Shown here one piece after another: positions 19,224 through 30,539 of a stretch of DNA of 34,208 nt. This DNA is from Nitrospira sp. (GTDB lineage Bacteria; Nitrospirota; Nitrospiria; Nitrospirales; Nitrospiraceae). The stretch is from the NCBI GenBank assembly GCA_016873495.1, contig VGXC01000031.1, positions 1-34,208 on the forward strand, read 5' to 3'. The translations under genes and the position numbers were made by a program. The notes under the pieces are model-generated. The model saw only the letters and a list, made by a program, of their open reading frames with translations, was not told where the DNA came from and searched no databases. Each line of letters begins with the position of its first letter. Positions within the stretch are counted from its first letter, which is position 1.

Positions 19224-20240
19224 TCAGAGCTGTCCCAATAAATAGATTTCACCGGTCGGTTGCGGACGGCCTCCTTCGGGTTCCAGGCTCACGGCAAACT
19301 TCGTGAGCTGGGTTGGAGCGGGCATGCTGCGGACGATGAGGCGGCTCTTGTGGCCTGTATCGGTGGAGAAGATGCCGGCGCTGACCGGTTTATCCACGAT
19401 CGCCCAGAGTTGATAGGTCTTCCCGGCCGGCAGGGCCGGCATATTGAAGGCGTAGAGGAACGCTTTCTTGGTATCCGGATCGTAGAGCAGGAGGGCGCCG
19501 GCGGACTTAGCCATCGCCGATCCGGCTAAGGATACGGCCTTCACGTGTGGTGATCGCAAAAAGGCCAGCATCTCATCCCTCTGCGCCAGCGCTTTGCGCA
19601 AGCCGGCTGTTTCTTGTTCGCGGCTAGCCACCTGTGCCCGCAATTGCGCCACTTCGGCCTCCTGGCGGACCAGAAGGTCCTGTAACTCGCTGAGGTTGCC
19701 TGCCCCGCGATTGACCTCCTCTCGCATGCCTGTCAGTAGCTGTTCCTGTTCCTGGATCTTGCCTTGCAACGTCTGTATCCGTCCGGATTCCATATGCAGG
19801 GCCTCTTCGATCCGTTGACGTTCCTCGACCGCCGTCGAGGCCTGGTACTGAACCGACAAAGCGTAGAAGGCCGTGCCTGCGAGGAGGACGAGAAGAAGGG
19901 CCGCAAAGGCCGGGTGCGTTCGCCAGGTCGGTGGGGGAGGGAGCAGGTGCTTGACCCAGCCGCCCGATTCGAGGGTTGGACTGGCTTGAGGAACGATGGA
20001 GGGTTGAGGGGCGGCGGCCTGGGCCAACGAGCCCATGAGGCTTGTCTTAAGCTGCGGCGGCGCCGATTGCAGAGGCAAGGAGTAGGGGAGCAGCCCCGCT
20101 AACTTGCGCGACTCTTTGAGCGCGGCATGGCAGGCTTGGCAGCCGGTCAGGAGGTGCGCCTCGAGGGCCTGTCGCTCCGGCCGCTCCAAAGCTCCGGTTG
20201 CGTAGGAGGCAATGTGCTCTTCAAAGACTTCGTGAGACAT
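19224..20240 (-). CDS. Zinc-finger anti-sigma factor with RskA-like C-terminal domain
   Basis: 338 residues. The N-terminal 45 residues carry the anti-sigma zinc motif (HIASYATGALERPERQALEA, then HLLTGCQACHAAL) that binds the ECF sigma factor. A single membrane span follows near residues 110-130 (AFAALLLVLLAGTAFYAL), then a long periplasmic coiled coil (about 135-225, Glu/Gln-rich heptads). The C-terminal RskA-like domain contains LLLYDPDTKKAFLYAFNMPA, GKTYQLWAIVDKPVSAGIFS and FAVSLEPEGGRPQPTGEIYL. Inner membrane topology is inferred. It holds the sigma factor inactive until a signal triggers release. It lies 40 bp downstream of the sigma gene, same strand, a classic pair. Confidence 0.92.
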   Translation of the reverse strand: MSHEVFEEHIASYATGALERPERQALEAHLLTGCQACHAALKESRKLAGLLPYSLPLQSAPPQLKTSLMGSLAQAAAPQPSIVPQASPTLESGGWVKHLLPPPPTWRTHPAFAALLLVLLAGTAFYALSVQYQASTAVEERQRIEEALHMESGRIQTLQGKIQEQEQLLTGMREEVNRGAGNLSELQDLLVRQEAEVAQLRAQVASREQETAGLRKALAQRDEMLAFLRSPHVKAVSLAGSAMAKSAGALLLYDPDTKKAFLYAFNMPALPAGKTYQLWAIVDKPVSAGIFSTDTGHKSRLIVRSMPAPTQLTKFAVSLEPEGGRPQPTGEIYLLGQL

Positions 20241-20280
20241 GCTGGCGATTCCTACTCGAGTGCGATGCCGTCGTTACGGC

Positions 20281-20865
20281 TTAGTCGGCCCATGACTGCA
20301 GAGCGATCTTCAGCTTGGTCATGCCGAGCTTGATTCTGGTCTTGATGGTTCCCACCGGCTGGCGCAATCGTTCGGCGATTTCCGTGTGGGAGAGCCCTTC
20401 GAAATAGGCCAGCTCCAGGGCTTGTTGCTGCCCCTCTGGCAACTCCGCTAAGGCTTTTCGGACCGATGCCCGCAGTTCCGTCTGCTGTTGATCTTCCAGA
20501 GGGCTCGGACCTTCGTTCGGCAATTGCGCCGCCAGCCGGTCGTCAATCGGATCGGTCGTTCCATAGCCCTTGCTGGCGCGCGACCGCAGCCGGTCGATCG
20601 CACGGCTGCGGGCCAGGGTCACCAGCCAGGCCATCGGCGAGCCGCGGCCGACGTCGTACCGGGCCACCTTGCGCCAGACCTCTAGATAGATCTCTTGCAA
20701 CAGCTCGGTGGCTTCATCGCGGTCCCCGAGAATTCTGAGGGCGAGCGTGTACAACAGCGCGCTCGACTGGTCGTAGAGTTCTTCGAATGCTTGTTGGCTC
20801 CCCTTGGCCACTTGCGCCAAGAGGTCTGGGGATAGGGCGGACGCTGGTCTGGTCGACGAATCCAT
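20281..20865 (-). CDS. ECF RNA polymerase sigma factor (SigK/RpoE-like)
   Basis: A 194-residue extracytoplasmic-function sigma factor. Region 2 (about 25-95) has AFEELYDQSSALLYTLALRI, the EATELLQEIYLEVWRKV box and SPMAWLVTLARSRAIDRLRS. Region 4 (about 130-185) has LAELPEGQQQALELAYFEGL, SHTEIAERLRQPVGTIKTRI and the final KLKIAL. It recruits RNA polymerase to stress-type promoters. Its regulator, the RskA-type anti-sigma, follows directly. Target genes may include the downstream exported protein. Whether it also controls the lasso cluster is open; the cluster's last gene ends only 137 bp upstream on the same strand. Confidence 0.94.
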   Translation of the reverse strand: MDSSTRPASALSPDLLAQVAKGSQQAFEELYDQSSALLYTLALRILGDRDEATELLQEIYLEVWRKVARYDVGRGSPMAWLVTLARSRAIDRLRSRASKGYGTTDPIDDRLAAQLPNEGPSPLEDQQQTELRASVRKALAELPEGQQQALELAYFEGLSHTEIAERLRQPVGTIKTRIKLGMTKLKIALQSWAD

Positions 20866-21002: not shown

Positions 21003-22292
21003 TCAGGGAGTTGCAGGGCCCTGCGGCTTCGACGCGACCGCTTGTGGCAAGGAACCTCTCCGCCGCGAGGTGATCGAACGCGGCGGCTCAAGCGAAGCTT
21101 GGTATGGCGGGCTCTGGCGCGGCGTCGGTCTGATGGCGACCAACCCCACCAGCCCCTTGCCGCCCTCCCAGAGGAAGTAAAGGAGGCGGGCCATATAACG
21201 GAAGCCCAGCCAGGGGCGACCGGAGAGGCCATAATGGGCCCGCATGAAATCCGAAGAGGGGAAGAGAATCCCGCATGCATAACGCCACTTAGCCTGGAAT
21301 CCCCTCATGGTCAGCAAGTGGGCAAGGCTCTCGCGCCCGTCCACGTCGGAATCGCCCCGCAAGAGTGGGGTCAATCGCCGATACAGGAAGTTCCGGGGCA
21401 CAGGCTCCGAGGGAGCCCTCAACTGAGTGAAGATGGGCGCTGGAATGGGCGAACCGAGGAGGGCACGGACCTCGCCGAGCAGTCCGGCCAGCAATTCATG
21501 CTGCCCCGTCTGCCTGGCCATGTGCAGAACCTGCGTCCAGTCAAGGGTGTCCGGCTCCTGTCGGATGACGAGGTCCAATTCATACCACCAGAGCAGGGGG
21601 GCCTGCGCCCCTTTGTGAATCAGATGAAAACAGAGGTGCAGCAGGAGGTCGGAGCGGCTCAGCAACAAGGTGTCGACGCCGACCACCCTGCCGGGCACCG
21701 CTCGCGCCCAGACCGCGTCCATATCCATGCAATCGGCAAAGGGCGGATAGGCAATCGTCCAGTGGGGCTCCACACAGACCCTCGCCGGGCGCTCTTTGAC
21801 GAATTCCAGGGTGTAGGAATAAGTTTTGGCAAACCCGGGCCTCCGATCAACTTCTCGGTAGTCCAACTCAGCCAAGGCCGTCCCGACCTCGGAAAGCTGG
21901 GTTCGTTGCACCAGAAGATCAAGATCGCCGAAGAAACGGGCGGTCGGGTCGCCATACAATTGCGTAGCCAAAGCAGGTCCGCGGATCGGAATACAAGCGA
22001 TCCCCCTCTGGTCGAGAGATTTTAAAATGAGGGCCAGTTCTTCGGCTAGGAACATGCTGCGCGCTGCGCGCTGCGCCATGCGGGGCCTCAGGCCGGCGGC
22101 CAATCTCCGGAGTACCGGACGATGCTCGCTTCGTTCGACCAGCCATCGAAAGACGATTGGCGAGAGGTCTTGGGCCTCCGCCCCCTCGACGGCTTGGGCC
22201 CATTCGGATTCGCCTTCCTCGGTGACAGGAGGCTCTCCTCCGGACGGGTTAAGCAATGCCATCAAGTACGGGTGGGCAGTATCCCTTGTCAT
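21003..22292 (-). CDS. Nucleotidyltransferase family protein of lasso cluster
   Basis: A 429-residue protein of the NTP_transf_5-like group. The core region has GIACIPIRGPALATQLYGDP, followed by FFGDLDLLVQ, whose GDLD provides the metal-binding acidic pair of the nucleotidyltransferase fold. The N-terminus (SEWAQAVEGAEAQDLSPIVF) and the helical C-terminal half (HLCFHLIHKGAQAPLLWWYE, LVIRQEPDTLDW) also fit this group. Such genes are frequent companions of lasso-peptide clusters with an HPr-kinase-like enzyme, where they are thought to act on the phosphorylated tail. I chose ATG 22292 behind GAGAGG. An in-frame extension to 22613 overlaps the previous gene and is low in features. It is the last gene of the cluster. 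Confidence 0.85.
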   Translation of the reverse strand: MTRDTAHPYLMALLNPSGGEPPVTEEGESEWAQAVEGAEAQDLSPIVFRWLVERSEHRPVLRRLAAGLRPRMAQRAARSMFLAEELALILKSLDQRGIACIPIRGPALATQLYGDPTARFFGDLDLLVQRTQLSEVGTALAELDYREVDRRPGFAKTYSYTLEFVKERPARVCVEPHWTIAYPPFADCMDMDAVWARAVPGRVVGVDTLLLSRSDLLLHLCFHLIHKGAQAPLLWWYELDLVIRQEPDTLDWTQVLHMARQTGQHELLAGLLGEVRALLGSPIPAPIFTQLRAPSEPVPRNFLYRRLTPLLRGDSDVDGRESLAHLLTMRGFQAKWRYACGILFPSSDFMRAHYGLSGRPWLGFRYMARLLYFLWEGGKGLVGLVAIRPTPRQSPPYQASLEPPRSITSRRRGSLPQAVASKPQGPATP

Positions 22293-22459
22293 GGCTGGGC
22301 GACCTCTCGATGTTGCGCTAGGAGGCCAAGGTTCGTGGTCGAATGAAGGACCGGATTTTCGTACAGGCGGTTGACTCGCTTCGGCCCCTTGAGCGGTCAA
22401 GGTCTCCTCCCGCAATTTGTGTGGGCGATCAACCTGGCTGACCTGTGTGGCGTCCTCCG

Positions 22460-24049
22460 TTATCGCCAGAGCTGGCGCGTCCGGGTGAACATTCGGCGAA
22501 CGGCACGCTTCCATACCTTCGGAATCAGAGCCAGCCCTTGGCGCAATTCTCGTATTGCTTCTTTCCGCTGCCCTTGCTTCAAGTACAGACGAGCCAAGCG
22601 ACCGCGGACCCACAGGGTATCATAGTCGCCGGCAATGCCCATGCGGTAGCCGTTGATGGCCTCTTTCATGGCTCCTTGTATCTCATACAGACGGGCAAGT
22701 CTGGCGTGGATCAAACCATGCTCAGGGTCCAGGAAATGTGCTTGCCTTACCAGCGTCGCGATCGGCTCATGCAGAGGTTTCTGCCCTTCGAGCGCCAGCT
22801 TGAGCGACCGTTCGTAGGCTGCAATGGCGTCTTCCACACGTCCTTGCTTCACAAGGACATCCCCTAACGAGCGGTACCCGTCGGTGAAACGGTTGTCCAA
22901 AGCCAGGGCCTTCTTGAGCCATTCCTCTGCTTCATGCCACTGTTTGTGGCGAATGGCTAGGAGTCCAAGGCCGAAATGCGCATACGGATTGAGGGGGTCG
23001 AGCTGGAGCATGCGATGGTGCTCCTGCTTGGCTCTCTCGAATTGTCTGACCGAATGGTACAAGAGCCCGGAGTGACCGTAGGGGGTACGGTAGGTCCGGT
23101 CCAGATCTAAGGCGCGTTGATACTGGACTCTCGCTTCTGCGATCCGACCTTGTTGAAGATGCAAGTGGGCGAGGTGGTAGCATGGGGCGGCGGACCCCGG
23201 CAGGAGTTTGCTGGCTACCTGGTAGCCCTCTTCTGCAATCTGCAACTGGCCGACTTCTGCGGCCTGTGCTCCTTGTCGCATCCGCGCCAAGCCCTGCAGG
23301 GTTAAAGCATCGGCCCTGCCTGTGAGACGGGAGGCGACCTCCATACCCAGGTACTTCCATTTAAGCGGAGTGAAACCTCCTTCGACCGAATAAGCAATGG
23401 TGGCACATCGTGCCTGAATCCCGGCGGCATGCAGCCGCCCGGCCAGATCCTCCGGCCAGCACCAGGGAAGGGAGCTGTGCTGGCCGGCTGTCTCATAGGA
23501 CACATGCGGGATGACAAGAAAATCGATATCAATATCGAGGAGCACCGCTTCTTCGATCGGGAGCAACGCTCTTAGCGGATAGATCGTGAACGGTTTGGCC
23601 AGGACCGTCGTGGAAATCCGATCTCCATCGAGATCGATTGCTTGCCGAGGGCCAGGATACTGCCGGATGAGGTCTTTCAGATGGCGAAGGATGGCACGAC
23701 GACTGCTGGGCTGATCCCACGAGGGGTCGGGCACGACCCAATGGACTTCCCTCACCAGCCCGTCAAGCAGGGCGGGACAAATATAGTTCGCAATGGTGAG
23801 AGACTCAGCGGCGTTCATCCAGTACATGTCATGGTGAGCGTCAATATGGATGAGGAGGTGATCCCGGATGCCCTCTTCGCGCCAGACATGATAGGCCTGG
23901 TCGTGATTCTCCATCAAAACGATCCGGGTAGGGGAGTCCGGATGAGCCCATCCCGATGGTTCAGTGACTGTGAGGCCAGGTTTCGCCATCTTATTTTTGT
24001 CGCGGCTGCCGAGGGTTGCGGCGTGTACTATCGATGGGCGCAGGGGCAT
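22460..24049 (-). CDS. UPF0489 arginase-fold protein fused to TPR repeats; candidate peptide arginase
   Basis: 529 residues. Residues about 35-245 are a UPF0489 domain of the arginase/deacetylase fold: RIVLMENHDQAYHVWREEG, LLIHIDAHHDMYW with the Mn-binding DAHxD, and AVLLDIDIDFLVIPH with the second DxD pair. Residues about 265-515 are six or more TPR units (YHLAHLHLQQGRIAEARVQY, PYAHFGLGLLAIRHKQWHEA). From memory, UPF0489-type enzymes (OspR and relatives) convert Arg to ornithine in ribosomal peptides, releasing urea. The precursor core here has four Arg, so this role is attractive but unproven. The TPRs may hold the peptide or partner enzymes. ATG 24049 lies 5 bp after the kinase stop; ATG 23989 is an alternative. 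Confidence 0.82.
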   Translation of the reverse strand: MPLRPSIVHAATLGSRDKNKMAKPGLTVTEPSGWAHPDSPTRIVLMENHDQAYHVWREEGIRDHLLIHIDAHHDMYWMNAAESLTIANYICPALLDGLVREVHWVVPDPSWDQPSSRRAILRHLKDLIRQYPGPRQAIDLDGDRISTTVLAKPFTIYPLRALLPIEEAVLLDIDIDFLVIPHVSYETAGQHSSLPWCWPEDLAGRLHAAGIQARCATIAYSVEGGFTPLKWKYLGMEVASRLTGRADALTLQGLARMRQGAQAAEVGQLQIAEEGYQVASKLLPGSAAPCYHLAHLHLQQGRIAEARVQYQRALDLDRTYRTPYGHSGLLYHSVRQFERAKQEHHRMLQLDPLNPYAHFGLGLLAIRHKQWHEAEEWLKKALALDNRFTDGYRSLGDVLVKQGRVEDAIAAYERSLKLALEGQKPLHEPIATLVRQAHFLDPEHGLIHARLARLYEIQGAMKEAINGYRMGIAGDYDTLWVRGRLARLYLKQGQRKEAIRELRQGLALIPKVWKRAVRRMFTRTRQLWR

Positions 24050-24054
24050 GACGA

Positions 24055-25056
24055 TCAGACATGACCAAGCTCTGATCCAGCCACATCTAGGAGCACCGTC
24101 TCTCTGACTGAGGATAGAGCGGAGAGGTCATTGGGCAGTTTCAGCAGCCGAACTGGAACCAGGGATACCATCTGCGCCAGAAAGGAAAGCTGTTCTTGCA
24201 GGACCAGGCGATCCGTGATGTCGAGCGTGAATAATCCTTGGAGGAGTTCCATAAAAGCAACCCGGCGACTGAGCGGTTCGATCCGACCACCTCGGTCTGC
24301 CTGTTCATCGTCCCGTCGCAGGCAGAAGATTCTCGCCAGCGGTTCCGGGGCAGTCGGGAAATCCTGGTGGTCGGGCAAGACCAGGCGCTGCTTGCTGGTG
24401 TAGTGCGCGACAGGAAGAGCTGGGTGATGGGATGAGTTGAGGGCCTCGCGCACGTCATCCCAGAGGCGGACCCCCGGAGAGGCTGGAACGGCAAGAATCT
24501 GTCCCTGGCGCTCTTGGACGACTAGGCAATCATCGCTCAGGATCGGGTAGCCGGCCAGAGCGAAGCTGGCTGCCAGGGTAGACTTTCCCGCCCCGCTGGG
24601 ACCGGTAAATGCACAGACGCCGTGGGGAGTAAGCACAGCCGTCGCATGGAGTGCCTGGATGCTTCGCAGACTAAGGACCAACGGGAGGGTCTGGTTCAAA
24701 AGGAGGTGGTGCAGGGTCTCCGGCGGTGTGCCGAGGCAGGGCTGCCCAAGGACATGCTGCCCTTCACGGTCTGTTAAAAAATCCGCCAGCCCGTGGAACC
24801 GGAGCAAGTAGCCGTTTTCCTGCTTGGCGCAGGAGAGCCACGGCTCTCCGTCCGGCAGGCTGGAGGACATGAACCAATCAGAGGCGGGCAAGAGACCATC
24901 GTGGGCATCCGAGAGGCAAACATGGATACCCGCTTCTGTGCCAAGACTTCCGTCGGGGAGCGCGGGCAATTGGGAAAGCGGCATGTTGCAGGTCAGGGTC
25001 AGACCGGAGAACCGATAGGTGAAGGGATGGCCCGGCGATGGAGAATCGATAGTCAT
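24055..25056 (-). CDS. HPr-kinase-like lasso-peptide kinase
   Basis: A protein of about 333 residues. The N-terminal part starts FTYRFSGLTLTCNMPLSQLP, typical of HprK-related enzymes in lasso clusters. The central P-loop is CAFTGPSGAGKSTLAASFA (Walker A), followed by YPILSDDCLVVQE, which corresponds to the Asp-rich metal site of HPr kinase. In the paeninodin pathway such a kinase phosphorylates the C-terminal Ser of the precursor. Here the precursor ends in Arg, so the target may be Ser9 or Ser5 of the core, or another substrate. I chose ATG 25056; ATG 25149 would add 31 basic residues not seen at the start of relatives. It lies just downstream of the precursor gene. Confidence 0.85.
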   Translation of the reverse strand: MTIDSPSPGHPFTYRFSGLTLTCNMPLSQLPALPDGSLGTEAGIHVCLSDAHDGLLPASDWFMSSSLPDGEPWLSCAKQENGYLLRFHGLADFLTDREGQHVLGQPCLGTPPETLHHLLLNQTLPLVLSLRSIQALHATAVLTPHGVCAFTGPSGAGKSTLAASFALAGYPILSDDCLVVQERQGQILAVPASPGVRLWDDVREALNSSHHPALPVAHYTSKQRLVLPDHQDFPTAPEPLARIFCLRRDDEQADRGGRIEPLSRRVAFMELLQGLFTLDITDRLVLQEQLSFLAQMVSLVPVRLLKLPNDLSALSSVRETVLLDVAGSELGHV

Positions 25057-25203
25057 TGGCCGTTGCCTATCATGATGTTTGCTGCCAATGGTGGCAGGTT
25101 TGCGGCGTGACCGAGGAGAGTCGACTGGCAGCGGAAGGCGGCGATGCATGCGGCTTCGCCATTTCGATCAGTCGCTATCAGGCGCCGGCCTGAGTTCAAG
25201 TTG

Positions 25204-25353
25204 TTATCGCTTGCGGCGGTGACTGTCCTTACCGGAGCCAGCCCTCCCCTGCGTCAATTTCGCAATTGGACCGTACTCTGTGAGTTGAGGAGTCTCATAG
25301 GGCTTTTTGCCCACGGAGGGAACTGGTTTTGATCCTTGATTATTCTGCGTCAT
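25204..25353 (-). CDS. Lasso peptide precursor (49 residues)
   Basis: A short gene found by direct translation between the synthetase and kinase genes. It starts ATG 25353 behind AAGGAGG, spaced four bases, the best ribosome-binding site in the cluster, and ends TAA at 25204. The leader contains YETPQLTEYGPIAKLT (residues 19-34), an exact fit to the lasso leader pattern YxxPxLxxxGxxxxxT. Tyr, Pro and Leu are bound by the PqqD-like protein, and the Thr is the penultimate leader residue. The predicted core is GRAGSGKDSHRRKR: Gly1 and Asp8 can form the macrolactam ring, leaving a six-residue tail SHRRKR. Four Arg, two Lys and one His make it strongly cationic. Other cleavage or ring sites are not excluded, but the only carboxylate side chain after the Thr is Asp8. 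Confidence 0.88.
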   Translation of the reverse strand: MTQNNQGSKPVPSVGKKPYETPQLTEYGPIAKLTQGRAGSGKDSHRRKR

Positions 25354-25374
25354 GGAGCCTCCTTACTTATCTTT

Positions 25375-27330
25375 TCAGGCCAAGGTCAGAGACTGATTTT
25401 TACCTGAGGCCGCACGGATATGATCCGGAGCCATTTCTAGGGCTTCGCGGTTCGACTGGGCCTCGGTGAGCCAAAGTTCCATCCCGACGATCATCCAGAG
25501 AGGCGAACAATAAGCCCTGTAAGCCTGATTGTCTTGCCGATAGCGCTGTCTCAGGTCGTGATACATCCGTTGGACTTCTATGGAATCGATCCATCCTAAC
25601 GTGCCGATGGTCGTCGTTTCCAGGAAATTCAGCATCGCCCCAGCCCAGGGAGTCAGTAGTAGCTCGGCATCAGTATGCGAGAAATCGGCTTTGGTCGAAC
25701 GCTGCCGGACCGACTCGGGTAGGCGATCGCCCATGGTCCGGCGAAGTACGAATTTAGTGATGGGCCCGCGCTGGCGCTGGTCTTGGGGGATGGCCAAGGC
25801 GAACTCCACTACACGCCGGTCATTGAACGGATGGCGTGCGTCAAGCCCAAGCCGGCTCGTGGCTCGTTCGGCCATCTCGTAGCAGATGCTCTGCTCGCCG
25901 CTTCTGACAAACTCATATAGGGACCGCTGGGCGTAGCTCTGGAAGCGACTTGGGAGGGGTGCGGACCGCAACCGGTCGGCCAGATAAATGCGCTTGGCGA
26001 ATTCTTTATCAATCCAGGCCGGCACTCCGTCACGCTTGAAGACCCGGCCATAAGCCTGCCGGACACGTGGAAGGAGCAGGCCGAGTGTTTCTTTGAAGTT
26101 CGCGAGGACATGCCTTGCACTTCCTTCACACGTGAGCGAGCGGAGGAATGTGCCAATTTGTCCTGTGCGCAGCAGATCCGCATAGGGGGCGAAACCCTCG
26201 CCAAGCCAGTCGTCTCCCCCCATCCCTGTAAGAACAACCCGTATTCCCTTCTCGCGAACGAGGCGATAGAGGTCCATGGCCATTGTTTCATTCGGATGGT
26301 CAGGGAAATCACGTTGCTGTCGGATTTGGCGGAGGAGATCGTTGGGAGCGGCCCTATACTCGTCTACCAGGTTCGATTTGAGATCCCATAACTGCACGAC
26401 GTCCTGAATATAGGAACGTTCATCGCAGGGCCTGCCCGGGAAGATCAAGGAGAAGGTCTCGAACCCCTGGCCCTGAACAGTACCCTCCCGGTGCAGGCTT
26501 TGGATCAGGCCAACGACAGAAGAGGAATCCAGGCCCCCACTTAACTCGGCTCCAATCGGACCGTTACTGCGCAGGCGAGCTCGGACGGCCTCTCCGAGCA
26601 CTGAACCGAAATGCTCTGCGTAGGCGTCATCGGTAACGTAACGGATTTCGTGCAGAAGATCGATATCCCAGTACCGGAAGGTTTGCAGCCGATTCGGTTG
26701 CACCGACAGCCAATGGGCGGGCGGGAGCCGTACGATCCCTCGGTACAGTGTCTCCTCCTGACTCAGAATGTCGTCCGCCAAGAACTCGCCGATCATCCCC
26801 TCATTAGGCTCACAAGGGACGGCCGGATGGATCAACAGGGGAGCCAATTCGGAAGCGAAGAGGAACCGACGATCGTCGGCATAGTAGTAGAACGGCCGGA
26901 TTCCAATATGGTCGCGGGCGCAAAAGAGGCGGCGCCGGCGCTCGTCCCAAATCGCAAAGGCGAAGTCGCCGACGAGGTGAAGCGGCGCCGTGTCACCCCA
27001 GCACTCGTACGCAGCAAGCACCAGTTCGGCATCGGTGTCGTCGCGCAGAATGTGTCCCTTGGCTTCCAGCTCCCGATGCAATTCCTCGCGGTTATCCACC
27101 CGGCCGTCGAGCGTGAGGGCCAGCCGTCCGGTCCGATCGACCAGCGGCAGTTGTTCGTGGAGCGATTCGGGCGTGGTGCAAAGTCGGGCATGGCCCAACC
27201 CGATCGGCCCGGCGATCCAGAGGCCTTGTCCATCCGGCCCCCGGTGGATCATCTGCGCGAGCATCCGATCGAGCAAGGTCCGCTCGATCGGGCGGCCGTC
27301 ATAATGGAGGATGCCGACAATGCCACTCAT
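25375..27330 (-). CDS. Lasso peptide macrolactam synthetase (asparagine-synthetase-like, C protein)
   Basis: 651 residues of the AsnB family. The N-terminal glutaminase-like domain (1-200) begins MSGIVGILHYDG and has MIHRGPDGQGLW and GDFAFAIWDERRRRLFCARD. Position 2 is Ser, where active glutamine amidotransferases have Cys, so ammonia release from glutamine is not expected. The synthetase domain (about 230-600) has the PPi-loop ELSGGLDSSSVVGL, VVLTGMGGDDWLGEG and the C-terminal HPFNDRRVVEFALAIP. In lasso pathways this enzyme adenylates the Asp/Glu side chain and closes the ring onto the core N-terminus. Start ATG 27330 has AGGAG seven bases upstream. The precursor gene follows 21 bp downstream. 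Confidence 0.9.
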   Translation of the reverse strand: MSGIVGILHYDGRPIERTLLDRMLAQMIHRGPDGQGLWIAGPIGLGHARLCTTPESLHEQLPLVDRTGRLALTLDGRVDNREELHRELEAKGHILRDDTDAELVLAAYECWGDTAPLHLVGDFAFAIWDERRRRLFCARDHIGIRPFYYYADDRRFLFASELAPLLIHPAVPCEPNEGMIGEFLADDILSQEETLYRGIVRLPPAHWLSVQPNRLQTFRYWDIDLLHEIRYVTDDAYAEHFGSVLGEAVRARLRSNGPIGAELSGGLDSSSVVGLIQSLHREGTVQGQGFETFSLIFPGRPCDERSYIQDVVQLWDLKSNLVDEYRAAPNDLLRQIRQQRDFPDHPNETMAMDLYRLVREKGIRVVLTGMGGDDWLGEGFAPYADLLRTGQIGTFLRSLTCEGSARHVLANFKETLGLLLPRVRQAYGRVFKRDGVPAWIDKEFAKRIYLADRLRSAPLPSRFQSYAQRSLYEFVRSGEQSICYEMAERATSRLGLDARHPFNDRRVVEFALAIPQDQRQRGPITKFVLRRTMGDRLPESVRQRSTKADFSHTDAELLLTPWAGAMLNFLETTTIGTLGWIDSIEVQRMYHDLRQRYRQDNQAYRAYCSPLWMIVGMELWLTEAQSNREALEMAPDHIRAASGKNQSLTLA

Positions 27331-27417
27331 GGCTCTCCTACGGTCGGGACAGGGCTCGTGAGCGAGGCGCGTTGATCGGCAGGAGAGCGCCATCCTGCCC
27401 CCGATGTCGCATGTGGT

Positions 27418-27852
27418 TCATTTCTCGCTTGTGGAATAGAGCAGGGTATAGTTCTCGAAGCCCGCTTGCCCGAGTAAGACCCGGCCGTTCTGATCCAACC
27501 AGGCATGGGCCGTGAAAAAACCGTGCTCCCGTGCCACGCCGATCCGCACGTGCCCCTCCTGCCCGCGCCGTCTGAGCATATACAGCAGCACCAGCGTTTG
27601 CCTGAGGCAAGGACCTCTGGCCGGCCCGGCAAGGGCGGCACGCTCGACCAACCAGGCCAGTCGAGGCGCGTCTGCCTCGGCGGACAACGGCCACCGGATC
27701 GCGCTGGATGGAACCCGGCGCAGGAAGTTCAGCACAGACTGGAATGGGATCACGAGGAGAGCGATCTCTAGCGACCACAGCAGCCCCCAGGCTTGCCCTA
27801 GGCAGAGCGCTTCTGCCCACGTGAGCCGACGGAGCTTACGCAGTCGTTCCAT
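27418..27852 (-). CDS. Lasso peptide leader peptidase (B2, transglutaminase-like)
   Basis: 144 residues of the lasso B2 / Transglut_core3 family, a cysteine protease that cuts the leader after the residue following the conserved Thr. The catalytic Cys lies in GPCLRQTLVLLYMLRRRG, the His in FTAHAWLDQNGRVLLG, with the Asp just after it, and the end GFENYTLLYSTSE is typical. The start ATG 27852 (MERLRKLRRLTWAEALCLGQ) lies inside the end of the B1 gene, a 17-base overlap, so translation is probably coupled. A longer frame from 27936 would lie within B1. Works together with the PqqD-like protein, which brings the leader. Confidence 0.9.
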   Translation of the reverse strand: MERLRKLRRLTWAEALCLGQAWGLLWSLEIALLVIPFQSVLNFLRRVPSSAIRWPLSAEADAPRLAWLVERAALAGPARGPCLRQTLVLLYMLRRRGQEGHVRIGVAREHGFFTAHAWLDQNGRVLLGQAGFENYTLLYSTSEK

Positions 27853-28147
27853 CTTGGAGTTCAAATAGCCCCTTCTCCAGCCCAAGGGCAACGAACTTGA
27901 GCAAGTCTTCGCGGCACCGTGCTTCGGCCACCTCATATTCTTGGACCATGCGGTCCAATACCGACTGCAGGTGCCGGTGTTCCTGCAACAAGTGCCAGAT
28001 ACGCGTGCCCACCTGGTCCAGGCCGAAATATACTCCGGTCGTCAGGTTGAGGAGCACCAATTCTCCCTGCAGATCTCGGAACACGACGCCCTCCGCAATG
28101 TTCACGCGGGAGGCAGGTGATAGCTGTGGGTCTGTGACGTTGGACAT
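27836..28147 (-). CDS. PqqD-family leader-binding protein (lasso B1, RRE)
   Basis: 103 residues of the PqqD/RRE fold (three strands and a helical bundle). It contains VNIAEGVVFRDLQGELVLLN, LTTGVYFGLDQVGTRIWHLL and VLDRMVQEYEV, the usual PqqD pattern with the leader groove between strand 3 and helix 3. It binds the lasso leader at the Tyr-Pro-Leu motif and presents it to the B2 protease and the synthetase. Start ATG 28147 is preceded by only weak purines. It overlaps B2 by 17 bases. Split B1 and B2 are usual in clusters from Firmicutes, Actinobacteria and several other phyla. Confidence 0.9.
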   Translation of the reverse strand: MSNVTDPQLSPASRVNIAEGVVFRDLQGELVLLNLTTGVYFGLDQVGTRIWHLLQEHRHLQSVLDRMVQEYEVAEARCREDLLKFVALGLEKGLFELQDGTTA

Positions 28148-28283
28148 TGGGCTGAAAGGAACGGTTGAGTCGTCGTTGGCGTAGGGTATCGTCCAAGCTC
28201 TCGGAAGTCAAGAAAGGCGTGGTTCCCGAAGATAGGGCCTGCGAAAGGTTCGACCTGTCGCCTGTCGAAAGACCTGAGCAAGG

Positions 28284-29369
28284 TTAGCGGAGGTGCGAGG
28301 CCAGGATCTCTGCGGCTTCGGCCGCTCCGGTCGGCGCCGGCGGAGCATAGAGCGGGGCAGGCAAGGCCTGCACCGCCGCAAGCGCCGCTTCCCAACGACC
28401 TGCCTCGAAATCCTGAACGGACAGTTGTAGCGCCCGTCCATATCGGTGAAGAAACTGTACCAGGCATTCTTCTTCCGCGAAATCAGACCGTCTGACATAG
28501 AGGGTGGGCTTCCCCATGGTCACGGCCTCGACGGTCATGTTGTAGCCGGGTTTGGAGACAATCACGTCGACCGAAGCCATGAGGGTGTCGAACGAAAAAG
28601 GCATCGATCTCGATGAGCGCAGGCGAGAACACCCGGATGGCACGGACTCGCTGATGATAAACCGGTAGCCCTGAAGGGCGTCGAGCTGGCTCAGCGGGAG
28701 ACGAGTATGGGCGATCCCCCCGAAGCCCACCAACACCAAACAATCGTCCGGCTGAACTCCCAGCGCGGCGTTGAGCCGAGGGCGCTCAGAAACCAGTGGT
28801 CGTATAATAGGAGCGATGACAGTCTGTTTTGGGAACGCGGAAAAAGACATGCCGGGCCTAACCCGCATCAACAGATCCGCATGGCTGTAGGCATGCCGGA
28901 TCTGTTGGATCACCTTCGCCTGCTGAGTATCACCCGGCGTCATGAGCGGCTCTAGGATCTGGTCCCAGGACAAGCTGGACATCGCAATCGTCGGGAGGCC
29001 AGCCCTGGCTCCGGCTTCGACAGCCAAGTGCGAAATGTTCGACAGGAGCAGGCTTGGCGCTTGGGAGCGGATGGCGCGGGTTTCTTCTTCGACCAGGGCA
29101 TCCCACCGTTCATGAAACCGCTGCGTTTTGGCCCAGGTTGCGGCACGGTCGATGTGAAGCGGGTCGTCCTGCACGCAGCCGATATCCTGTGGCTGGGGAC
29201 TGATCTCCCACTCGATCGTGAGGCGTTCTTCAAAAAACCGCCGGGGCACCGTGGTACGGAGCAGGGTTTTGAGGCCCGGGATGCGGGCTCCGAGTTCGTT
29301 GAGCACCGGGACCGTTTGCGCGGCATGTCCGAACCCATGGCCTGAGATGGAGCACCAGATCAGTGGCAT
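28284..29369 (-). CDS. GT-B glycosyltransferase (MurG/UGT-like) in lasso cluster
   Basis: 361 residues. The N-terminal loop CSISGHGFGHAAQTVPVLNE resembles the glycine-rich acceptor loop of GT-B enzymes (MurG/MGT type). The C-terminal nucleotide-sugar region has VIVSKPGYNMTVEAVTMGKP and LYVRRSDFAEEECLVQ. LLSNISHLAVEAGARAGLPT is the typical mid-domain helix. No membrane segment is seen, so it should act in the cytoplasm. It starts 9 bp after the small TPR gene and lies 136 bp ahead of B1 on the same strand. That suggests a tailoring role, possibly sugar addition to Ser, His or a phosphorylated tail, but the donor and acceptor are unknown. It could also be unrelated to the peptide. Confidence 0.75.
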   Translation of the reverse strand: MPLIWCSISGHGFGHAAQTVPVLNELGARIPGLKTLLRTTVPRRFFEERLTIEWEISPQPQDIGCVQDDPLHIDRAATWAKTQRFHERWDALVEEETRAIRSQAPSLLLSNISHLAVEAGARAGLPTIAMSSLSWDQILEPLMTPGDTQQAKVIQQIRHAYSHADLLMRVRPGMSFSAFPKQTVIAPIIRPLVSERPRLNAALGVQPDDCLVLVGFGGIAHTRLPLSQLDALQGYRFIISESVPSGCSRLRSSRSMPFSFDTLMASVDVIVSKPGYNMTVEAVTMGKPTLYVRRSDFAEEECLVQFLHRYGRALQLSVQDFEAGRWEAALAAVQALPAPLYAPPAPTGAAEAAEILASHLR

Positions 29370-29378
29370 GCGGAGGGA

Positions 29379-29696
29379 CTATCCAAGCTGCTGGAGGAGA
29401 GCCATCAGCTCCGGGACTAGATCGACCCCGCCGGAGGATCGGCCCGACTGGGCTGCGTCGATGCCGGCTTGCAAGATTGGCCTGGCTTCGTCCTTCCGCC
29501 CAAGTTTGACGAGGGCGCGGCCCAGGGCCAGGTGGGAAGCGACATGCGTCGGATCCAATTGAATGGCGATCTGTAGATGCTCGGCTGCTTCTGAGAGGTC
29601 GCCACCTTCTTGCAGCAACTTATTGCCCAACCCATAGCGCCCCAAAAATCCCTTTGGGTTTTTAACCACCATCTGGCGGAATGCGTCAATATCCAT
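29379..29696 (-). CDS. Small TPR protein, first gene of lasso operon
   Basis: A 105-residue soluble protein made of two or three tetratricopeptide units (FLGRYGLGNKLLQEGGDLSE, HVASHLALGRALVKLGRKDE). No signal peptide or catalytic motif. The ATG at 29696 has AGGA eight bases upstream. Its stop is 9 bp from the glycosyltransferase start, so it very likely leads the same transcript as the lasso genes. It may bind partners or the precursor; the UPF0489 protein of the cluster also has TPRs. Specific function unknown. Confidence 0.85.
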   Translation of the reverse strand: MDIDAFRQMVVKNPKGFLGRYGLGNKLLQEGGDLSEAAEHLQIAIQLDPTHVASHLALGRALVKLGRKDEARPILQAGIDAAQSGRSSGGVDLVPELMALLQQLG

Positions 29697-29729
29697 GATC
29701 GTATCCTGGTTTCTCTTTAATCGCGCGGC

Positions 29730-29738
29730 ATCATAGCA
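29730..29738 (-). promoter_or_regulatory. Extended -10 promoter of the lasso operon (candidate)
   Basis: On the minus strand TGCTATGAT (29738-29730) fits an extended -10 element (TGnTATAAT). It lies about 35 bases before the ATG at 29696. A clear -35 box is not visible. It is the most likely start for the transcript running from the small TPR gene through the lasso genes. Confidence 0.4.
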
Positions 29739-29765
29739 TTAAGTCTTGGCGGCCATCCACAGCGA

Positions 29766-30539
29766 TTACCGTTCCAATCGGGCTTGCCGCAGGACTGCCA
29801 AACGAGCTTCATCCTCCGCCGCCTGAGCGAGCCGATATCGGCTGTTCACCACGACCACCCGCGCCAGACATCGAACGGCCGAGAGCCGATCGCCTCGCCG
29901 TTCGTAGAGTGACGCCAGGAGGCGCAGTACCGCAGCTTCGCCCGGCTCATTTCCCAGCTTGATGAAATGCTCCGAGGCGTTATTGAGGCATTTCTCGGCC
30001 TGATCGTCCCGGCCTGCGGCCAGAAAGGTCTTGCCCAGTTGACTGTAGGTCACGGCCAGTCCATCTTCGTCTCCCGCGACGCGGTGGGAATCCAGGGCTT
30101 GTTTGAAGGCGGCGATCGCTTCGTCATAACGATGGCCGGCCGCTTCCTGGAGCCCGAGGTTCGAATAGAGGATGCCGAGCGCCCGATGGTCCTGGAGCGG
30201 CACGAGCATGTCCAAGGCTTCGAGGTAGTAGGGCCGTGCCTGCTCCGGATGGCCTGCCTCGGCCTGGATATTGCCCAGATTCACCAGGGTCTGCCCGACG
30301 GCCCGTTGGTCCGGTTCGGCTCGTTGGATGGCTAGGACTTCCCGGTAATATCGGTCCGCCTCATCGAGCGCTCCCAGCATGGCGCAGACGTTTCCGAGGT
30401 TGCCGAGGGTCTCGGTGAGCGACATTGCGGGGCCGCAGACTCGGTCTTCCGCAAGCGCCAGCTCAAACCAGTACCGAGCTTGCGCGAGATCGCCGCGATG
30501 CAGGAAGATCTTGCCTTTTTCCTTGTGAGCCTCCGACAT
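29766..30539 (-). CDS. TPR repeat protein
   Basis: A 257-residue soluble protein of about six TPR units from residue 5 to 245 (HRGDLAQARYWFELALAEDR, LGNLGNVCAMLGALDEADRY, LVNLGNIQAEAGHPEQARPY, LYSNLGLQEAAGHRYDEAIA). The longer helices recall Rapsyn/LGN-type TPRs. No signal peptide or enzyme domain is seen. ATG at 30539. It lies 69 bp upstream of the small TPR gene on the same strand, so it may be read through into the lasso operon. It is divergent from the adenylate cyclase gene. Function is unknown; protein scaffolding is inferred. Confidence 0.85.
   Translation of the reverse strand: MSEAHKEKGKIFLHRGDLAQARYWFELALAEDRVCGPAMSLTETLGNLGNVCAMLGALDEADRYYREVLAIQRAEPDQRAVGQTLVNLGNIQAEAGHPEQARPYYLEALDMLVPLQDHRALGILYSNLGLQEAAGHRYDEAIAAFKQALDSHRVAGDEDGLAVTYSQLGKTFLAAGRDDQAEKCLNNASEHFIKLGNEPGEAAVLRLLASLYERRGDRLSAVRCLARVVVVNSRYRLAQAAEDEARLAVLRQARLER

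What the first reader, a model, noticed from the sequence alone, without database searches (positions are those of the whole stretch)
21003..29696. Complete lasso-peptide cluster with an unannotated precursor gene
Directly visible: a PqqD-like B1, a Cys/His/Asp B2 peptidase, an AsnB-like synthetase and a 49-residue precursor at 25204-25353 with an exact YxxPxLxxxGxxxxxT leader and a core with Gly1 and Asp8. The precursor is too short for ordinary ORF length cut-offs but has the strongest ribosome-binding site of the cluster. Accessory genes are an HPr-kinase-like enzyme, a UPF0489-TPR protein, a nucleotidyltransferase, a GT-B transferase and TPR proteins. The combination is one I do not know from any characterised lasso pathway.
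Basis: partly seen in the sequence, partly recalled or inferred. Interest (0 to 1): 0.9.

Follow-up and report, generated by a model that had tools for sequence, protein, structure and literature searches.

The report
Lasso-peptide cluster with peptide-arginase gene
A Nitrospirota-family bacterium carries genes for a small knotted (lasso) peptide together with an enzyme that very probably turns the peptide's arginines into ornithine, a pairing I found described in no paper I could search; several of the other genes listed with it are ordinary neighbours found in nearly all relatives.

Summary
The 49-residue precursor (25204-25353, minus) passes NCBI's lasso-leader model. Its neighbours are a PqqD-type B1, a B2 peptidase and an AsnB-like cyclase. 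Fourteen related loci carry the same leader; thirteen keep an Asp at core position 8 or 9, while residue 1 varies (Gly, Ser, Lys, Glu, Met).

Two corrections to the interpretation. First, the GT-B and TPR genes are conserved flanks (GT in 159 of 175 family genomes, B2 in 23). The site between GT and an ECF-sigma/anti-sigma pair is a swap locus: empty, lasso cluster, or radical-SAM/PqqD RiPP cluster. Kinase plus nucleotidyltransferase is already known from pseudomycoidin. Second, the "UPF0489-TPR" protein is the real novelty. Its fold matches the peptide arginase OspR best (Z 14.4; ordinary arginases 10.0 or less) and all six Mn-binding residues are present. All four Arg of the precursor lie in the core. 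The congeners lack this gene. Its closest relative lies in a second lasso cluster in another phylum (Acidobacteriota); the two form a 100/99 clade.

Best reading: an ornithine-containing lasso peptide. No such pairing turned up in the papers searched. Enzyme activity and threading are inferred, not shown.

The parts
25204..25353 (-). lasso precursor A, 49 aa; leader without any Arg, core GRAGSGKDSHRRKR with all four Arg
   Evidence: NF033521 28.4 bits > 19; 14 related loci carry the same leader; ring motif xxxGSxxD shared by most 8-residue rings
25375..27330 (-). macrolactam cyclase C (AsnB-like); ORF opens at 27393, homologous start MSG at 27330
   Evidence: NF033535 524.9 bits, cut-off 525; SGGLDS
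27418..27936 (-). leader peptidase B2 (transglutaminase-like, Cys and His motifs)
   Evidence: (NF033537 67.8 bits > 33)
27836..28147 (-). RRE protein B1 (PqqD family)
   Evidence: (PF05402 58.4 bits > 23.4)
24055..25056 (-). HPr-kinase-like protein (ORF from 25149); H-K-D-D residues (LHAT, GPSGAGKST, SDD) present
22460..23989 (-). peptide-arginase-like domain (UPF0489, Mn ligands invariant) fused to TPR repeats (ORF from 24049); proposed Arg-to-Orn enzyme
21003..22292 (-). nucleotidyltransferase PF14907 (ORF from 22613; homology begins near 22292)
28284..29369 (-). GT-B-like glycosyltransferase: conserved left flank of the swap locus, not a lasso gene
29379..30539 (-). two TPR proteins: conserved flank
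19224..20865 (-). anti-sigma (19224-20240) and ECF sigma (20281-20865): conserved right flank of the swap locus

Best explanation
The cluster makes a lasso-type RiPP that carries ornithine. B1 (RRE) would bind the YxxPxLxxxG leader. The arginase domain of the UPF0489-TPR protein would hydrolyse some or all of the core arginines (R2, R11, R12, R14) to ornithine and urea, most likely on the linear precursor. B2 would cut after TQ and C would join Gly1 to Asp8 around the cationic tail. The HPr-like kinase and nucleotidyltransferase would add a further group, perhaps at a core Ser, though not at a C-terminal Ser as in paeninodin. The cassette sits at a chromosomal locus where this bacterial family swaps RiPP clusters. 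Shown here: genes, motifs, predicted fold, conservation, co-occurrence. Inferred: arginase activity on the core, order of steps, threading.
For: Precursor, B1, B2 and C pass or reach lasso-related models. The leader and Asp8/9 are conserved in relatives. The UPF0489 domain hits OspR by sequence (8brp, E 1.2e-5 alone, 7.6e-9 as a profile) and OspR is the top structural match (VIA Z 14.4, next 10.0; Foldseek E 1.1e-7). The residues aligned with OspR's Mn ligands (H12, D39, H41, D43, D165, D167; PMC10028609) are invariant across 19 homologues (H15, D36, H38, D40, D138, D140). The same enzyme (43% over 487 aa) lies inside a second lasso cluster with B1, B2, kinase, C, precursor and methyltransferase in an Acidobacteriota MAG (L061), and the two form a 100/99 clade apart from homologues found mostly in radical-SAM/PqqD clusters. 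The leader has no Arg, the core four of 14; twelve arginase-less relatives (L028 left out) carry 7 Arg in 280 core residues. Two congeners have the lasso cluster without the arginase, so it is an add-on to this cluster.
Against: No activity is shown. Pfam's gathering score for UPF0489 is not reached (21-22 of 27 bits), nor is the FlmR/OhkR cut-off (39 of 350). OspR's Glu11 is Asn here. L028 has an Arg-rich core and no arginase was found in its fragmented assembly, so Arg-rich cores need not go with one. Only two lasso-arginase clusters are known, and the Arg comparison rests on few related cores. The 14-residue core with a 6-residue tail is short and lacks an aromatic plug.
Confidence: 0.7

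Rival explanations
1. A lasso cluster of ordinary type in which the UPF0489-TPR protein is inactive on the peptide (a scaffold, or a leftover from a radical-SAM cluster that once held the same locus).
For: UPF0489-TPR genes are mostly found in radical-SAM/PqqD clusters, and in G304 one sits at this very locus beside the GT. The locus exchanges clusters.
Against: All metal ligands are kept; the closest relative is in another lasso cluster in another phylum, not in the local radical-SAM clusters; the gene lies between kinase and nucleotidyltransferase in the same direction.
Confidence: 0.2
2. The product is not a threaded lasso but another peptide cyclised by the same enzymes (for example a branched macrolactam), because the core is short, without a bulky aromatic plug, and relatives have Lys or Glu at position 1.
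For: Core residue 1 is Gly, Ser, Lys, Glu or Met in the family; the tail is SHRRKR.
Against: B1, B2 and C are the lasso set and score with lasso models; Asp8/9 is conserved.
Confidence: 0.2
3. The cluster is decaying or silent: precursor shortened, methyltransferase lost, no transporter.
For: The methyltransferase found in most relatives gave no match in the whole genome; no ABC transporter lies in the cluster; some relatives keep only B1-B2-C or a piece of the nucleotidyltransferase (L093).
Against: All reading frames are intact, the precursor has a strong ribosome-binding site, and no remnant of a longer tail follows its stop.
Confidence: 0.1

Closest known systems
Paeninodin / pseudomycoidin lasso clusters (kinase PadeK/PsmK, nucleotidyltransferase PsmN; PMC9266682)
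   Same: split B1/B2, AsnB-like C, HPr-kinase-like protein with H-K-D-D residues, nucleotidyltransferase
   Different: the known kinases modify a C-terminal Ser, here the core ends in Arg; no arginase is described in the known ones; no transporter here
Peptide arginases OspR, FlmR, OhkR (UPF0489; PMC10028609, PMC12703449)
   Same: arginase fold, six Mn ligands, RiPP setting
   Different: TPR fusion; precursor types listed for known peptide arginases (NHLP, N11P, SCIFF and others) do not include lasso leaders
PbsE / BipC, biphenomycin arginases (PMC12257519, PMC12707348)
   Same: PbsE: TPR-containing arginase by its authors' description, makes Orn in a RiPP; BipC: UPF0489 superfamily, makes Orn in a RiPP
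   Different: act on an FRF motif of MNIO clusters; sequences were not compared here
Citrulassin (peptidyl arginine deiminase; PMC9266682)
   Same: lasso peptide with a modified Arg
   Different: citrulline, not ornithine; enzyme of another family encoded far from the cluster

Membership tests
Lasso peptide cluster | leader YxxPxLxxxGxxxxxTx with Thr at -2 | tested here: met
Lasso peptide cluster | small residue at core position 1 and Asp/Glu at 7-9 | tested here: met
   window: Gly1, Asp8; in relatives Asp8/9 in 13 of 14, residue 1 variable
Lasso peptide cluster | RRE protein B1, transglutaminase-like B2, AsnB-like cyclase C | tested here: met
   (C is 0.1 bit under the NF033535 cut-off)
Lasso peptide cluster | threaded product | not testable with these tools
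   needs chemistry
Peptide arginase (UPF0489) | arginase fold nearest to OspR | tested here: met
Peptide arginase (UPF0489) | six Mn-binding His/Asp residues | tested here: met
Peptide arginase (UPF0489) | EEH(N/H)EAF motif as in pfam12640 members | tested here: inconclusive
   window has ENHDQAY: Glu, His and Ala kept, others differ
Peptide arginase (UPF0489) | Pfam gathering score | tested here: not met
   21.0 and 22.2 of 27 bits; hence called a homologue, not a catalogued member
Peptide arginase (UPF0489) | Arg-to-Orn activity on a peptide | not testable with these tools
   needs the enzyme
Paeninodin-type phosphorylated lasso | C-terminal Ser as kinase target | tested here: not met
   core ends in Arg; none of the relatives' cores ends in Ser
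Paeninodin-type phosphorylated lasso | HPr-like kinase with H-K-D-D residues | tested here: met

The most novel reading that the evidence does not exclude
Ornithine-containing lasso peptides exist: a dedicated lineage of TPR-fused peptide arginases serves lasso clusters in at least two phyla and edits the charge of the threaded peptide.
Probability: 0.65. Interest if true: 0.6.

Novelty: new variant of a known kind. Interest (0 to 1): 0.56.

Why it matters
It would add Arg-to-Orn conversion to the known tailoring of lasso peptides and lasso leaders to the substrates of peptide arginases, with an enzyme that could be used to put a reactive amine into lasso scaffolds. It also shows a chromosomal site where a bacterial family exchanges whole RiPP clusters, which can be read as a natural collection.

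Tried and rejected
GT-B and TPR genes as accessory genes: rejected, present in nearly all family genomes and beside empty sites. The PRMT-like methyltransferase of the relatives as an arginine methyltransferase on the core: unlikely, since most of those cores have no Arg. Precursor shortened by a recent frameshift: no remnant in any frame. More lasso-arginase clusters in the order of L061: none in 257 genomes; plasmids gave only TPR matches in the rows listed. Fold search with the whole fusion protein was swamped by TPR structures, so the domain was modelled alone. Arg content as proof: the numbers favour it (P 3e-4 against relatives, 0.017 against an assumed 7.5% background), but relatives are not independent and L028 is a counter-example.

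Full report
Observation. B1, B2 and C are confirmed by family models. The precursor has the best ribosome-binding site of the cluster.

Relatives. B2 homologues occur in 23 of 175 genomes of the family. In most of those read, the order is GT - B1 - B2 - C - A - (methyltransferase) - HPr-like kinase - nucleotidyltransferase - sigma - anti-sigma. Thirteen of these loci and the Acidobacteriota locus L061 carry a precursor with the same leader. Thirteen of the fourteen have Asp at core position 8 or 9, and most 8-residue rings share xxxGSxxD, as in the window (GRAGSGKD). Residue 1 is Gly in most but Ser, Lys, Glu or Met in others. In four loci (L030-L033) B1, GT and C are there but no kinase, nucleotidyltransferase or precursor was found beside them; the two read gene by gene (L030, L032) have unrelated genes directly after C.

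A swap locus. GT is in 159 and the anti-sigma gene in 153 of 175 genomes. Where both lie on one contig (118 genomes), 74 have them less than 2 kb apart, 10 have lasso genes between them, and 33 have a gap of 7-12 kb without a B2 match. Ten of those were read: all ten hold a kinase-like and a nucleotidyltransferase-like gene, and PqqD-like or radical-SAM proteins are plainly visible in at least five; G304 holds a radical-SAM cluster with its own UPF0489-TPR gene. One genome, L093, has only a piece of the nucleotidyltransferase left. Five genomes with a B2 match have a near-empty site, so their lasso genes lie elsewhere. Against the congener L026 the window's DNA matches at about 79% down to 26845, finds no match from there to 22004, and matches again at 73.5%. 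The break lies inside C, where protein identity falls from 72-80% to mostly 32-52%. So the core cassette was exchanged in one of the two lineages while B1, B2 and the flanks stayed.

The arginase. Two congeners and most of the family lack UPF0489; it is in 4 of 175 genomes, the other three in radical-SAM settings. The domain matches OspR by sequence, and a good model (mean pLDDT 86) has OspR as its first structural match, well above ordinary arginases. The metal ligands named for OspR (PMC10028609) are invariant in 19 homologues. The window and L061 share the absence of a stretch of about 35 residues that the radical-SAM type has after the DxHxD motif, and form a clade with support 100/99. L061 is a lasso cluster in another phylum with B1, B2, arginase-TPR, kinase, C, precursor and methyltransferase. 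In L062 (the same contig as L054) the same kind of enzyme carries a PqqD domain at its C-terminus, a further sign of a RiPP role.

Known work. Peptide arginases are reported with NHLP, N11P, SCIFF and several provisional precursor types, and in biphenomycin-type clusters (PMC12703449, PMC12257519, PMC12707348); the first does not contain the word lasso. Two reviews of lasso tailoring do not contain the word ornithine (PMC9266682, PMC8498205). Searches for the two subjects together gave no paper on this pairing. The library holds open-licence papers only, so an earlier report elsewhere cannot be excluded.

Mechanism. The leader has no Arg and the core four, so within this precursor only core arginines can be the enzyme's target. 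I expect Arg-to-Orn conversion on the linear precursor before B2 and C act; that order is inference. The kinase keeps its H-K-D-D residues, but the known C-terminal Ser target is absent, so its target is open.

Noticed in passing
window 19224-20865 and 28284-29369; L087-L099: A family-wide RiPP swap locus between a GT gene and an ECF-sigma/anti-sigma pair: empty, lasso, or radical-SAM/PqqD cluster.
   Followed up: partly
L026 5836-7029, L027 10187-11401, L036 9063-10259, L061 7152-8312: Lasso clusters of relatives carry a PRMT-like methyltransferase with a C-terminal extension, although most of their cores have no Arg; target unknown, and the window's cluster lacks it.
   Followed up: partly
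L054 6275-8218: UPF0489 arginase, TPR repeats and a PqqD domain fused in one protein inside a radical-SAM cluster.
   Followed up: no
L034, L039, L045, L058: Lasso-type cores with Met-rich tails ending in Cys-Leu.
   Followed up: no
L093 2070-2693: A lone piece of the nucleotidyltransferase between GT and sigma, apparently the remains of a lost cluster.
   Followed up: no
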